A DNA stretch of 5,987 nt, taken from positions 1 through 5,987 of the forward strand of contig RFHX01000331.1 in the NCBI GenBank assembly GCA_003695725.1, in the 5' to 3' direction. The DNA is from J061 sp003695725 [NCBI: Candidatus Schekmanbacteria bacterium]. Its GTDB lineage: Bacteria; Schekmanbacteria; GWA2-38-11. Of the stretch, positions 2,536 to 5,987 are shown piece by piece. Within the stretch, counting starts at the first letter, position 1; each line of letters starts with the position of its first letter. The position numbers and the translations under genes were made by a program. A model generated the notes under the pieces. It was not told the origin of the DNA and made no database searches. It saw nothing but the letters and a program-made list of their open reading frames with translations.

Positions 2536-3282
2536 ATGAAAAGAAAAATAGTTATAATCGATGAAGAAAAATGCACAGGTTGCGGTGACTGTATCCCAAA
2601 ATGTCATGAAGGCGCTCTTCAGATCATAGACGGCAAAGCTCGTTTGGTTGCAGAAAAATATTGTGATGGATTAGGAGATTGCCTTGGAAGCTGCTCTTTT
2701 GATGCTATAAGAGTAGAAGAGAGAGAGGTTTCAGAGGATTATGATGAGGAAGCAGTAAGAAAGCGTCTTGAAAGTATGGGAAAGAAGTATCGACCAAAAG
2801 TCAGGCAGAGAGACAGCAGAACGCACAATCATATGGGAGGAGGATGTCCATCAGCTGTTGCAAGAGAAATTACACGAAATGAAGAAACATCGCACTCATC
2901 AGAAGAGATAAAGGAAAATTCAGAGCTTAGGAATTGGCCTGTCCAGATTTCACTTGTTGCGCCGCAAGCGCCTTATTTCAATGATGCCCATTTATTGATT
3001 GCGGCTGATTGTGTGCCTTTTTCTTATGCGGGATTTCATAGAAGATTTTTGAAAGATAAGGTGCTGTTGATAGGATGTCCGAAGCTCGATGATGCGCAGT
3101 TCTATATGGAAAAGTTTACAGAGATATTCAAGAGGAATTCAATCAAAAAAATTACATTGGTTCATATGGAAGTTCCATGCTGTTTCGGAATGGAACAGAT
3201 AGTAAATAGCGCACTTGAAAAGTCAGGGAAAACCATACCGTTGGAAAAAGCCGTTGTATCGATTGAAGGAAAGATTTTATGA
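2536..3282 (+). CDS. 4Fe-4S ferredoxin-like iron-sulfur protein with cysteine-bearing C-terminal domain
   Basis: This 248-residue cytoplasmic Fe-S protein belongs to a conserved anaerobe family whose exact role is not known to me; I recall relatives in Deltaproteobacteria and Clostridia, some near hybrid-cluster protein genes. The N-terminal ferredoxin domain has a complete cluster motif, C13-x2-C16-x2-C19-x3-C23. It is followed by EGALQIIDGKARLV and a second motif with C43, C49 and C53 only. The expected second cysteine is Leu46 (CDGLGDCLGSC), and this looks like a family trait. A variable charged linker (about 62-130) contains GGGCP at 101-105. The C-terminal domain (about 135-248) carries C159 (AADCVPFSYAGFHR), C181 (IGCPKLDD) and the pair C215-C216 (MEVPCCFGM), which could bind another cluster or form a redox-active site. 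The start is well supported: GGAAAGGA ends seven bases before the ATG. The reductase gene downstream on the same strand suggests an electron-carrier role, which is an inference. Confidence 0.88.
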   Translation: MKRKIVIIDEEKCTGCGDCIPKCHEGALQIIDGKARLVAEKYCDGLGDCLGSCSFDAIRVEEREVSEDYDEEAVRKRLESMGKKYRPKVRQRDSRTHNHMGGGCPSAVAREITRNEETSHSSEEIKENSELRNWPVQISLVAPQAPYFNDAHLLIAADCVPFSYAGFHRRFLKDKVLLIGCPKLDDAQFYMEKFTEIFKRNSIKKITLVHMEVPCCFGMEQIVNSALEKSGKTIPLEKAVVSIEGKIL

Positions 3283-3602: not shown

Positions 3603-4604
3603 ATGTCAGCAGATAAATTTATTGAAGATAAGGAGCAAAAGGTTGTTATTGATGCAGAAATTGATGGAAAGAGCGGTGAGCTCGATTTTAATACTCTGAA
3701 ATCAGGAGGTGTAATCAAACAAAGGCAAAAAGAGCTTTTTACCGTTCGTCTTCGGTGTCCCGGCGGACGAGTCCCTGTTGACAGACTTGAAAAGATAGCT
3801 CAGATTGCAAAAAAGTACGGCGGCGATTATGTCCATATCTCTGTGCGCCAATCGATTGAGATTACCTATGTAAATTTTAAGGACCTTGGCAAATTGAAGG
3901 CAGAGCTTGATGCAATAGGACAGGAGATTGCCTCCTGCGGTCCTCGAGTAAGAGTGCCGACTGCCTGTGCAGGGTGTGAATATAATCCCAATGGACTTAC
4001 AAATGCTCAGGCAATGGCAGATATGGTAAACCGCCGTTTTTTTGGCAGAGAACTTAACCATAAGTTTAAGATTGCTTTTGCAGGATGTCCAATAGATTGC
4101 CCAAGGACGAATGAAATGGATCTGGGATTTCAGGGAGCAGTAAAACCTCTTTGGAATGAGGGTAGATGCACTGGTTGCCGTCTCTGTTCATTCACCTGCC
4201 TCGAGGGTGCAATTACAGCAGATAAGGATACAGGGCATCCCATTATAGACAAATCTAAATGCCTCCATTGTGGAGACTGTATCAGAACATGCCCCTCCGA
4301 TGCATGGGAAGAGGATATAAAGGGATGGAAGGTTAGAGTTGGAGGAAAACATGGGAGACATCCTCTTTGTGGCAGTAGAATTGCAGAATTTGTTACAGAT
4401 GAAGAAATCCCTTCTATTATAGAGAAAATCCTTGAATGGTATAAAACGAATGGCGAAGGGAAGGGGAGGAAAAGAATAGGCACGCTTCTTCTTCAAGATG
4501 GGGCATGGGAAGATTTTCTGAATTTTGTAAAACCGGTGCTTGGTAATAAAGCCGTAGATTCTCCGCCTCCGCCTCTACAGGTCGATGTGCATTTTGAAAG
4601 ATAG
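3603..4604 (+). CDS. Siroheme/4Fe-4S sulfite or nitrite reductase-like protein fused to a two-cluster ferredoxin domain (DsrLP type)
   Basis: This 333-residue protein matches the COG2221 family (dissimilatory sulfite reductase-like). Residues about 38-108 form the nitrite/sulfite reductase ferredoxin-like half domain (VRLRCPGGRVPVDRL; ISVRQSIEI with Arg82, a likely substrate or siroheme contact). The siroheme-4Fe-4S region has CAGCEYNPNG (C122, C125) and GCPIDC (C162, C166). The second pair has the usual C-x3-C spacing, but the first is C-x2-C, with Asn128 where the usual C-x5-C motif has cysteine. Two 4Fe-4S motifs follow: C189-x2-C192-x2-C195-x3-C199 and C220-x2-C223-x2-C226-x3-C230-P. A C-terminal tail (GAWEDFLNFVKPVLG) completes it. 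It contains a single copy of the reductase fold, unlike the doubled assimilatory enzyme. GGGAGG ends six bases before the ATG and supports this start. Sulfite or nitrite reduction is likely from the family, but no activity can be assigned, and no DsrAB, AsrA or AsrB partner is present here. Confidence 0.9.
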   Translation: MSADKFIEDKEQKVVIDAEIDGKSGELDFNTLKSGGVIKQRQKELFTVRLRCPGGRVPVDRLEKIAQIAKKYGGDYVHISVRQSIEITYVNFKDLGKLKAELDAIGQEIASCGPRVRVPTACAGCEYNPNGLTNAQAMADMVNRRFFGRELNHKFKIAFAGCPIDCPRTNEMDLGFQGAVKPLWNEGRCTGCRLCSFTCLEGAITADKDTGHPIIDKSKCLHCGDCIRTCPSDAWEEDIKGWKVRVGGKHGRHPLCGSRIAEFVTDEEIPSIIEKILEWYKTNGEGKGRKRIGTLLLQDGAWEDFLNFVKPVLGNKAVDSPPPPLQVDVHFER

Positions 4605-4685: not shown

Positions 4686-4722
4686 ACTGTCTTTTTAGTT
4701 GCCGGACAGTCTCTTTTCTTTG
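4686..4722 (+). terminator. Weak candidate terminator downstream of the reductase gene
   Basis: ACTGTC (4686-4691) and GACAGT (4705-4710) can form a six-base stem, or seven with a T-G pair, around a loop of 11 to 13 bases. It is followed by a T-rich but interrupted tail (CTCTTTTCTTTG). It lies about 80 bases after the reductase stop. The short stem and broken T-tract make it doubtful. Confidence 0.33.
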
Positions 4723-4822
4723 TTGTTTATTTCCCTCAATGGCTATGACCTGCCTTGATTAAGATATTCAGCATAATGGAGTTTAAACTATCAGCTCTAT
4801 TGGCAATATGACTTTCAGCCAC

Positions 4823-4856
4823 AAAAAAGCCCCTGATATATGAATTTATCAGGGGC
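4823..4856 (-). terminator. Rho-independent terminator of the PEP-CTERM gene
   Basis: Read on the minus strand, a perfect 10-bp stem (GCCCCTGATA at 4856-4847, TATCAGGGGC at 4838-4829) closes an eight-base loop and is followed at once by six Ts (4828-4823). It begins 38 bases after the stop codon of the PEP-CTERM gene. The + strand lacks a T-run on the far side, so it works mainly for the minus strand. Confidence 0.93.
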
Positions 4857-4894
4857 AGATGAGTATGATGTATGTATGAGGCGGAGTTTCTTTT

Positions 4895-5728
4895 TTATAT
4901 TTTTCTTCCCGCAAAATACATACCAACAAGTCCAATTCCAATTAGCATAATAGTTGATGGTTCAGGCACAGGAGGGGTTGACCCGCCCATATTGTGTCCA
5001 ACATCGAGCCAATCATTATTGCAGTCAGGAGACCATTCCATAATTATGCTCGTATTTTTTCCCGGATTCCCGATTGCCGCCTTTGGAATAATTCCTTCGA
5101 TAACATAGGTTGCATAACCTCTTTCCACGACACCGGCGTCGTAATAAGCAAAATTTGAAACATCTCCAGTTTTTGTGCCTGTCCCAACATGCATATTGGT
5201 TTTCATATAGTGGCCTGAATCAGGGTATCCCATAGGATAACCGGCTCCTCCTTGGTCAAAAGTCCAAGTTGCGTCCTTCCAAATTTCACCCTGATTTGCA
5301 TCGTCGATAATTTCAATTCCATATTCCCGTAATGGACCATTGCCAATTTTCAAGCGAATATCTCCAGGACCAAAAATTCGTGTAGAAGGATATCCCCACA
5401 TATCACCCGGAAAGCCGTCTTCTCTCATCGATGTAACAATTGCAAAATAAACATCTGTGGCTGTATCATCTAAATACATTGCTTCAACATCGAATACTTC
5501 TGCATTATCCCATCCCGGAGGAGAAGGATGTATTCCTCCTGTATCCCAATTAGCAACGGAATAATCTGCCGAAGCAGGAGTCGGCACCCACGAATTGTCG
5601 AAATCTTGTCCACTTACGCTTAGTGTGATCCCGAAATGATCCTGCAAAATAGTTGCATTCGAAAATGAAAAAGAAAAGATAAAGATGCTCATAGTGAAAA
5701 AAAGTATAAGAAATTTTCTTTTATTCAT
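4895..5728 (-). CDS. PEP-CTERM sorting-domain protein, secreted or surface-anchored
   Basis: This 277-residue protein has a Sec signal peptide: KRK at residues 3-5, a hydrophobic stretch to about residue 22 and a likely cleavage after SNA (residue 25). The C-terminal sorting signal is textbook: PPVPEPST at 252-259, a hydrophobic helix MLIGIGLVGMYFAG (261-274) and a basic end, RKI. Such proteins are processed by an exosortase (EpsH/XrtA type) and are tied to exopolysaccharide or biofilm matrix. The ectodomain (about 26-250) is rich in Trp, Tyr, Gly and Asp (NWDTGGIHPSPPGWDN; VEAMYLDDTATDVYFAIVTS) and looks like a beta-sandwich; a CBM9-like carbohydrate-binding fold is possible but unproven. 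GGGAGGG (5743-5737) lies eight bases before the ATG. The gene has its own sigma-54-like promoter and a strong terminator, so it is probably monocistronic. No exosortase or polysaccharide gene is in the window. Confidence 0.93.
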   Translation of the reverse strand: MNKRKFLILFFTMSIFIFSFSFSNATILQDHFGITLSVSGQDFDNSWVPTPASADYSVANWDTGGIHPSPPGWDNAEVFDVEAMYLDDTATDVYFAIVTSMREDGFPGDMWGYPSTRIFGPGDIRLKIGNGPLREYGIEIIDDANQGEIWKDATWTFDQGGAGYPMGYPDSGHYMKTNMHVGTGTKTGDVSNFAYYDAGVVERGYATYVIEGIIPKAAIGNPGKNTSIIMEWSPDCNNDWLDVGHNMGGSTPPVPEPSTIMLIGIGLVGMYFAGRKI

Positions 5729-5764
5729 AATATTAACCCTCCCTTTTCGTTTTGTTATTATATA

Positions 5765-5781
5765 TGCAATAAGTATGCCAA
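5765..5781 (-). promoter_or_regulatory. Sigma-54 (RpoN) -24/-12 promoter of the PEP-CTERM gene
   Basis: On the minus strand TTGGCATACTTATTGCA matches the RpoN consensus TTGGCAC-N5-TTGCA/T except for the central C, which is T here. The GG at 5779-5778 and the GC at 5767-5766 have the required spacing. The predicted start is near 5755, giving a leader of about 27 bases that includes the GGGAGGG ribosome site. RpoN with the PrsK/PrsR two-component system is known to control PEP-CTERM genes in some bacteria, which supports the call. Confidence 0.75.
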
Positions 5782-5873
5782 GAGATGAATAATTCTTATA
5801 ATCATTATTAACTCATTGTAATTCAATATAATTATAGTTTGAATGAAAGAAAATTCAAATTAAGAGTTAGATG

Positions 5874-5986
5874 AAAAGTGTTCAAAAACCTGACACTTAA
5901 ATTGTAAAAATCGAGAAAAAAAGCGTCAAAAAAGTAATTTATCTTAATTTAATCAATAACTTAATTAAATATTAAAAAGTGTTCAA
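5874..5986. repeat. 12-base direct repeat AAAAGTGTTCAA, two copies
   Basis: Exact copies lie at 5874-5885 and 5975-5986, 101 bases apart. The base after each copy differs (A in the first, T in the second), and the second copy is cut short by the window edge. The sequence between them is AT-rich, with no gene seen. They could flank a small element or be binding sites for a gene outside the window. Confidence 0.5.
5876..5898. repeat. Small hairpin AAGTGT / ACACTT
   Basis: Six-base perfect arms (5876-5881 and 5893-5898) enclose an 11-base loop, TCAAAAACCTG. The hairpin lies upstream of the PEP-CTERM promoter and has no strong T-tract on either side. Its left arm is part of the 12-base sequence repeated at the window edge, so it may be one unit of a dispersed palindromic repeat. 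Confidence 0.45.
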
Positions 5987-5987
5987 T

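What the first reader, a model, noticed from the sequence alone, without database searches (positions are those of the whole stretch)
5729..5790. PEP-CTERM gene driven by a sigma-54-type promoter
TTGGCATACTTATTGCA on the minus strand fits the RpoN -24/-12 consensus with exact GG-to-GC spacing and lies at the right distance from a strong ribosome site. Established work links PEP-CTERM genes to RpoN and the PrsK/PrsR regulators in some bacteria. The window suggests that this circuit also exists in this AT-rich organism. The upstream AT-rich stretch (about 5785-5810) has an imperfect inverted repeat (AATAAT / ATTATT) that could bind the enhancer-binding protein.
Basis: partly seen in the sequence, partly recalled or inferred. 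Interest (0 to 1): 0.65.

Follow-up and report, generated by a model that had tools for sequence, protein, structure and literature searches.

The report
RpoN-controlled surface-protein gene in Schekmanbacteria
The stretch is very probably a sigma-54 promoter with a distant activator site in front of a gene for a sorted surface protein; it belongs to a known kind of control circuit (RpoN with PrsK/PrsR), here seen in a little-studied bacterial phylum.

Summary
TTGGCATACTTATTGCA (minus strand, 5765-5781) is a near-perfect -24/-12 element, 37 nt ahead of the start codon of a PEP-CTERM gene (4895-5728, -). The genome holds rpoN and an adjacent prsK-prsR pair over curated cut-offs. In this genome and three relatives, 22 of 37 scorable PEP-CTERM genes have such a site within 200 nt, against 0 of 37 on the opposite strand, 0.2 expected from shuffles, and 0 of 54 other genes sampled. 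Both orthologues found keep it. The likely activator site is a 17-nt dyad, TGTCAGGTTTTTGAACA, at 5879-5895 (-), 97 nt upstream. A TGT-N11-ACA box lies ahead of 20 of 20 sigma-54-type PEP-CTERM promoters with enough upstream sequence (1.5 expected). The phylum is Candidatus Schekmanbacteria. This is a new member of the PrsK/PrsR/sigma-54 PEP-CTERM regulon described by Haft et al. in 2006, with its own box sequence and a longer spacer. No exosortase was found in this fragmented genome; the relatives have one. Transcription is untested.

The parts
4895..5728 (-). PEP-CTERM gene, 277 aa: hydrophobic, signal-peptide-like N-terminus (by eye), no other Pfam domain, C-terminal VPEPS + hydrophobic stretch + GRKI
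   Evidence: orthologues 54% and 51% identical in two relatives
5765..5781 (-). sigma-54 -24/-12 promoter element TTGGCATACTTATTGCA; predicted transcript start about 5754
   Evidence: also ahead of both orthologues. The start position is inferred from the usual 12-nt offset, not measured
5737..5743 (-). ribosome-binding site GGGAGGG, 8 nt before ATG
   Evidence: sequence
5879..5895 (-). predicted PrsR-type enhancer box TGTCAGGTTTTTGAACA (23-nt dyad AAGTGTCAGGTTTTTGAACACTT at 5876-5898), 97 nt from the -24 element
   Evidence: a 17-nt box of this form ahead of 20 of 20 sigma-54-type PEP-CTERM promoters with at least 115 nt of upstream sequence
5980..5987 (-). possible half (ATTGAACA on the minus strand) of a second enhancer box, cut off by the contig end; too short to stand by itself
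   Evidence: second copies 139-224 nt upstream are common in this set
4829..4856 (-). intrinsic-terminator-like hairpin with T run after the gene, suggesting a one-gene transcript
   Evidence: 1 found, 0.9 expected in shuffles, so weak by itself; position fits
   Evidence: chance level; not within 60 nt of the element in the orthologues, and in only 1 of 23 promoters

Best explanation
The region is the control region of a PEP-CTERM gene, probably a one-gene transcript. RNA polymerase with RpoN (sigma-54) binds the -24/-12 element at 5765-5781 as an inactive closed complex. The response regulator PrsR, an NtrC-type activator phosphorylated by the membrane kinase PrsK, binds the 17-nt box at 5879-5895 (and perhaps a second copy cut by the contig end), loops to the polymerase and opens the promoter, so that the surface protein is made under the same signal as many of the other PEP-CTERM proteins. 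Shown here by sequence: gene, element, box, their conservation, and the presence of rpoN, prsK and prsR. Inferred: that PrsR is the protein that binds this box, that the promoter is used, where transcription starts, and what PrsK senses.
For: rpoN: one copy (482-aa ORF; sigma-54 DNA-binding domain 210.5 bits). PrsR 540.2 bits (cut-off 502.6) directly after PrsK 371.8 bits (cut-off 300; 5' part cut by the contig end) on contig C61. Of 37 scorable PEP-CTERM genes in four genomes, 22 have a site scoring at least 15.4 of 17.9 within 200 nt; opposite strand 0 of 37; shuffles mean 0.2, max 3 (200 runs); other genes sampled 0 of 54. Box: the loose form TGT-N11-ACA was applied before I had seen any promoters of the relatives except those of the two orthologues; it is upstream in 20 of 20 promoters with enough sequence (shuffles 1.5, max 6), and in 15 of 15 of the relatives' promoters without the two orthologues (shuffles 1.1, max 5). 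The tighter TGTY-N9-RACA, fixed, also gives 20 of 20 (31 boxes; shuffles 0.5, max 3). Other perfect sigma-54 sites of this genome: 4 of 25 with the loose form, 2 of 25 with the tight one. Composite box + 80-110 nt + element: 3 places in the window's genome, all ahead of PEP-CTERM genes; 21 places in four genomes against 1 for the mirrored pattern. Each relative has exactly one PrsR over the cut-off and one exosortase, about 2.8 kb apart, with EpsI and PrsK between and PrsT just beyond in the two relatives checked. RpoN dependence with a mapped start is published for pepA of Aquincola (PMC9850573, passages read).
Against: 15 of the 37 scorable PEP-CTERM genes lack a site within 200 nt by my score (one of these, L106, has it once its start is corrected), so not all PEP-CTERM genes belong. 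No exosortase was found in the window's own genome; the likely reason is that C61 begins inside prsK, and relatives have the exosortase and EpsI just upstream of prsK. My scoring weights were set by hand. The four genomes carry 7-16 NtrC-type regulators at E <= 1e-100, and no DNA-binding evidence ties the box to PrsR. Box spacing varies (53-170 nt for the nearest box). A sigma-70-like match exists upstream (5858-5831, minus).
Confidence: 0.86

Rival explanations
1. The gene is driven by a sigma-70 promoter in the AT-rich upstream region (TTGAAT-16-TATAAT, 5858-5831, minus), and the -24/-12 match is a coincidence.
For: One search lists this site (10 of 12 matches).
Against: 6 sigma-70-like sites were found in 4700-5987 with 5.1 expected by shuffling, so such sites are at chance level. 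The sigma-54 element is kept in both orthologues and in 22 of 37 PEP-CTERM genes of the four genomes.
Confidence: 0.05
2. The promoter is sigma-54 dependent, but a different NtrC-type regulator, not PrsR, binds the box.
For: The genome has about a dozen other NtrC-type response regulators.
Against: PrsR is the only one over the PEP-CTERM-box regulator cut-off in each of the four genomes. The box tracks PEP-CTERM promoters (20 of 20) much more than other sigma-54 sites (4 of 25 loose, 2 of 25 tight).
Confidence: 0.09
3. The enhancer is the AATAAT/ATTATT repeat next to the promoter.
For: The repeat is present, with perfect 6-bp arms.
Against: Chance level in this AT-rich stretch (20.5% of random 35-mers; 70 of 225 local windows). 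Within 60 nt upstream of the element it is found in the window's promoter only, 1 of 23, and in neither orthologue. It lies within 30 nt of the -24 element, closer than enhancers usually sit (general knowledge).
Confidence: 0.02

Closest known systems
PrsK/PrsR/sigma-54 PEP-CTERM regulon of Proteobacteria (Haft et al. 2006, PMC1569441; sections 7 and 19 read, other passages by term search)
   Same: 17-nt activator motif, then a 17-nt -24/-12 element, then a PEP-CTERM gene, in over 65% of cases a one-gene unit; PrsK and PrsR; PrsT and EpsH (here seen in relatives); sometimes two boxes
   Different: The organism lies outside the Proteobacteria to which the 2006 paper confined the motifs. The box reads TGTCGG-N5-TGAACA-like, whereas the paper's motif 1 ends in TTTACA. 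Nearest-box spacer 77-108 nt in 14 of 20 promoters (all 20: mean 106, SD 30) against 62.8 (SD 10.6, min 32, max 92) in the paper
pepA of Aquincola tertiaricarbonis RN12 (PMC9850573, passages read)
   Same: PEP-CTERM gene with mapped -24/-12 promoter and RpoN1 dependence; prsK/prsR in the genome; the authors also mention the predicted enhancer sequence upstream
   Different: Experimentally shown there, inferred here; a betaproteobacterium (recalled)
Geobacter sulfurreducens PEP-CTERM/PrsK/PrsR set (PMC7726332, passages read)
   Same: Similar component list (PEP-CTERM proteins, exosortase, PrsK, PrsR)
   Different: No promoter analysis in the passages read; a different lineage

Membership tests
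sigma-54 (RpoN) promoters | GG/GC with canonical spacing, TTGGCA...TTGCW | tested here: met
sigma-54 (RpoN) promoters | rpoN in the genome | tested here: met
sigma-54 (RpoN) promoters | transcript start about 12 nt after GC and RpoN dependence | not testable with these tools
   needs RNA work
PrsK/PrsR PEP-CTERM regulon (Haft 2006) | PEP-CTERM gene downstream | tested here: met
   PF07589 over cut-off
PrsK/PrsR PEP-CTERM regulon (Haft 2006) | PrsR and PrsK over curated cut-offs, adjacent | tested here: met
PrsK/PrsR PEP-CTERM regulon (Haft 2006) | 17-nt activator motif upstream of the -24/-12 element | tested here: met
   17-nt dyad at 5879-5895; a box of this form in 20 of 20 comparable promoters
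PrsK/PrsR PEP-CTERM regulon (Haft 2006) | motif 1 sequence ending in TTTACA (as described for Proteobacteria) | tested here: not met
   the 32 loose boxes of the 20 promoters end in GAACA (14), GGACA (7), AGACA (5) and others; none ends in TTTACA. The motif logo figure could not be seen. A lineage difference in sequence; the layout is the same
PrsK/PrsR PEP-CTERM regulon (Haft 2006) | spacer 32-92 nt between the two motifs | tested here: not met
   97 nt here; 53-170 nt for the nearest box in 20 promoters, 77-108 in 14 of them
PrsK/PrsR PEP-CTERM regulon (Haft 2006) | EpsH exosortase in the genome | tested here: inconclusive
   not found in the window's 374-contig genome; present once in each of three relatives, about 2.8 kb from prsR, beyond the point where this assembly breaks
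PrsK/PrsR PEP-CTERM regulon (Haft 2006) | PrsT in the genome | not tested
   not searched in the window's genome; present in the two relatives checked (562.5 and 565 bits, cut-off 312.2)

The most novel reading that the evidence does not exclude
In Schekmanbacteria PrsR has its own enhancer code (TGTCGG-N5-TGAACA-like, about 100 nt from the promoter) and governs a wider set of exported matrix proteins than PEP-CTERM proteins alone: 10 of the 21 composite sites in four genomes lie ahead of genes without a PEP-CTERM tail in the sequence held, 7 of these 10 with a signal peptide or membrane helices by eye, the others soluble proteins.
Probability: 0.45. Interest if true: 0.45.

Novelty: new member of a known kind. 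Interest (0 to 1): 0.36.

Why it matters
The 2006 study that defined this circuit found its DNA motifs only in Proteobacteria. Here the same kind of circuit, with a recognisable but different activator box, is laid out in a candidate phylum known mainly from metagenomes (recalled). This gives a list of probably co-regulated surface proteins, and pairs of PrsR and box sequences for asking how this regulator reads DNA. It does not change the basic picture.

Tried and rejected
Enhancer at 5785-5810: rejected. Sigma-70 promoter: chance level. RNA element: no Rfam match in the window at gathering scores. Structure of the PEP-CTERM protein: single-sequence model with mean pLDDT 37.9, unusable; no PDB sequence relative up to E = 1; its function stays unknown and no fold search was run.

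Only one (L131, Schekmanbacteria GWA2_38_11) stood out as a close PrsR (61.5% identity over 447 aa; the next 43%). It served to name the phylum, not to test the 2006 motif in Proteobacteria.

The first scan of the PEP-CTERM loci ignored that minus-strand loci are not turned round; redone correctly.

Rows dropped: of 45 PEP-CTERM matches (one, L113, under the family cut-off), 7 are cut at the 5' end (5 in G000, 1 in G001, 1 in G003) and 1 (L002) has only 49 nt upstream, leaving 37. Of the 23 promoters with a site (22 plus L106), 3 (L008, L014, L017) had under 115 nt upstream of it and were left out of the box count, leaving 20. Of the 15 PEP-CTERM genes without a site, two (L002, L015) had no stretch to judge; 1 of the other 13 has a box-like match. 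Of 26 perfect sites of the window's genome not ahead of a PEP-CTERM gene, one (L028) had too little upstream sequence, leaving 25. In one search I counted only rows with a literal P-E-P tail (9, from 7 of the 19 genomes fetched); the other rows were pattern false positives. All 9 have a site of at least 15.9; 5 of 9 have a box upstream of it.

The box form was first read off three own-genome promoter regions (in thought, not in a note); the test that counts as independent is the loose form used, recounted with shuffles.

Full report
Observation. The window is contig C331 of a 2.77 Mb, 374-contig genome (97.8% complete). Its last gene, 4895-5728 on the minus strand, codes for a 277-aa protein with a hydrophobic N-terminus and a C-terminal PEP-CTERM signal (PF07589, 31.4 bits, cut-off 20.7). 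Upstream, minus-strand 5781-5765 reads TTGGCATACTTATTGCA, with GG and GC in canonical spacing, 37 nt before the ATG; a GGGAGGG ribosome site lies between. A terminator-like hairpin follows the gene at 4856-4829 (1 found, 0.9 expected).

Is it more than chance? The motif alone is not decisive: the window holds a second exact core match inside a coding region, and of the 30 exact genome matches (mirror control 1) 13 lie in stop-free frames over 300 aa, one being the window's own site in a start-less extension of the PEP-CTERM frame. Position is decisive. The window's genome has 17 PEP-CTERM matches, and three relatives have 28 more, one of them under the cut-off. After dropping 7 genes cut at the 5' end and one with too little upstream DNA, 37 could be scored. 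22 have a site scoring at least 15.4 of 17.9 within 200 nt upstream of the start. The opposite strand gives 0 of 37 and dinucleotide shuffles average 0.2 (maximum 3 in 200 runs). A control of 54 non-PEP genes, taken from the longer stretches I held of the same genomes, gives 0. By genome: 6 of 11 in the window's genome, and 11 of 18, 4 of 6 and 1 of 2 in G001-G003. One further gene (L106) has its site once the start is corrected. Orthologues of the window's gene were found in 2 of the 40 other genomes searched, 54% and 51% identical; both keep the element (ATGGCATGAAATTTGCT and TTGGCATAATAATTGCA).

The regulators. rpoN is present (complete 482-aa frame whose C-terminal part contains ARRTVAKYRE, the RpoN-box signature as I recall it). 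Contig C61 carries a prsK-prsR pair, both over the NCBIfam equivalog cut-offs (PrsR 540.2 against 502.6; PrsK 371.8 against 300, although its 5' part is cut off). G001, G002 and G003 each have exactly one PrsR over the cut-off and one EpsH exosortase about 2.8 kb away. In G001 and G002 the order is glycosyltransferase-like and acetyltransferase-like genes (best models, under their cut-offs), exosortase, EpsI, PrsK, PrsR, with PrsT nearby on the opposite strand; G003's cluster was not scanned for EpsI and PrsT. The window's own genome showed no exosortase. Because C61 starts inside prsK, just where relatives have EpsI and the exosortase upstream, I read this as an assembly gap, but that is inference.

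The enhancer. Such a repeat is no rarer than chance in such AT-rich DNA (20.5% of random 35-mers, 70 of 225 local windows). Within 60 nt upstream of the element it occurs in the window only, 1 of 23 promoters, and in neither orthologue. Instead, a dyad AAGTGTCAGGTTTTTGAACACTT lies at 5898-5876 (minus), with the 17-nt core TGTCAGGTTTTTGAACA at 5895-5879, 97 nt from the -24 element; the contig ends in what may be half of a second copy (5987-5980). I read the form off three promoter regions of this genome and then searched the loose form TGT-N11-ACA upstream of all PEP-CTERM genes of the four genomes, having seen only the two orthologues' promoters among the relatives. It is present in 20 of 20 promoters with at least 115 nt upstream (shuffles 1.5, maximum 6 of 500 runs) and in 15 of 15 of the relatives' promoters without the orthologues (shuffles 1.1, maximum 5). 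A tighter form fixed afterwards, TGTY-N9-RACA, also gives 20 of 20 (31 boxes; shuffles 0.5, maximum 3). The consensus is TGTCGG-N5-TGAACA-like. The nearest box lies 53 to 170 nt from the element, 77-108 in 14 of 20. Of 25 other perfect sigma-54 sites in the window's genome, 4 have a loose and 2 a tight box. The two tight ones are ahead of a gene whose start reads like a glutamine synthetase (by eye, not tested), and ahead of an apparently truncated leader on C246. Of 13 judged PEP-CTERM genes without the promoter, 1 has a box-like match.

Specificity of the composite. The exact pattern TGTC-N9-RACA, 80-110 nt, TGGNA-N6-TTGC was sought in the four whole genomes. It occurs 3 times in the window's genome, each time ahead of a PEP-CTERM gene, and 21 times in all, against 1 for the mirrored pattern. 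11 of 21 precede PEP-CTERM genes. The other 10 precede other genes, 7 of them with an N-terminal signal peptide or membrane helices by eye; one of the 10 (L274) runs off the stretch held, so a PEP-CTERM tail is not excluded there.

Where it is. G003's contig C58 is identical over 10,318 bases (13 of them N) to MGDB01000058.1 of Candidatus Schekmanbacteria bacterium GWA2_38_11. The window's genome is in the same order by the tool's kinship table, hence the same phylum. Over 386 genomes searched, 23 have a PrsR over the cut-off, 19 of them outside these four; those 19 are unnamed. In the DNA around their prsR genes I found 9 genes with a literal PEP-CTERM tail, in 7 genomes, some of which are of one genus. 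All 9 have a sigma-54 site scoring at least 15.9, and 5 of 9 have a 17-nt TGT-N11-ACA box upstream of it, with different inner letters (no shuffle control there).

Comparison with what is known. Haft et al. 2006 (PMC1569441; sections 7 and 19 read, and passages) described this layout: a 17-nt motif 1 with TTTACA at its 3' end, a spacer of 62.8 nt (SD 10.6, max 92), a 17-nt sigma-54 motif, then a PEP-CTERM gene, and the proteins PrsK, PrsR and PrsT. They stated that only Proteobacteria shared the motifs. RpoN dependence and the transcript start of one such gene were later measured in Aquincola (PMC9850573, passages). What is added here is the phylum, a box of the same length but different sequence (none of 32 boxes ends in TTTACA), and a longer spacer. 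I could not see the 2006 logo figure, so the sequence comparison rests on the text. In the held library no paper contains both Schekmanbacteria and PEP-CTERM. The related searches (one search listed 20 of 44 papers) gave no report of this circuit in that phylum among the titles and abstract openings listed.

Verdict. Very probably a sigma-54 promoter of the known PrsK/PrsR PEP-CTERM regulon, in a phylum for which I found no earlier report; enhancer relocated. The steps from PrsR binding to transcription are inferred.

Noticed in passing
G000:C246:7178-7194 (L040, L082): A perfect sigma-54 element with two enhancer boxes (spacers 173 and 110) and a ribosome site leads only to a 29-codon frame that looks like a lipoprotein leader ending soon after its cysteine: either a degraded regulon gene or a tiny peptide.
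   Followed up: partly
G001:C2:227023-227138, C14:110644-110782 (L270, L275): Two non-PEP secreted proteins behind the same composite promoter share a C-terminal segment (..TYWYK.EDID..VKV..), possibly another surface-directing or structural tail.
   Followed up: no
G002:C22:32670-32797 and G003:C86:4296-4423 (L211, L212): The composite promoter precedes a small soluble protein in two genomes, with alike sequences (..GEITYGEALKLVE..FPEKEETFEL..), perhaps a conserved non-exported member of the regulon.
   Followed up: no
3603-4604 and 2536-3282: A sulfite/nitrite reductase-like Fe-S protein (best models sulfite reductase subunit C and DsrAB, all far below their cut-offs) with a ferredoxin-type protein upstream on the same strand.
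   Followed up: no
1295-2347: An O-methyltransferase-family gene (PF00891 with dimerisation domain); best NCBIfam models FlxJ and BchU, below cut-off.
   Followed up: no
G000:C248:1-80 (L015): A PEP-CTERM gene whose upstream TTGGCATA runs straight into a long T tract with no -12 GC, perhaps a decayed promoter or an assembly fault at the contig start.
   Followed up: no
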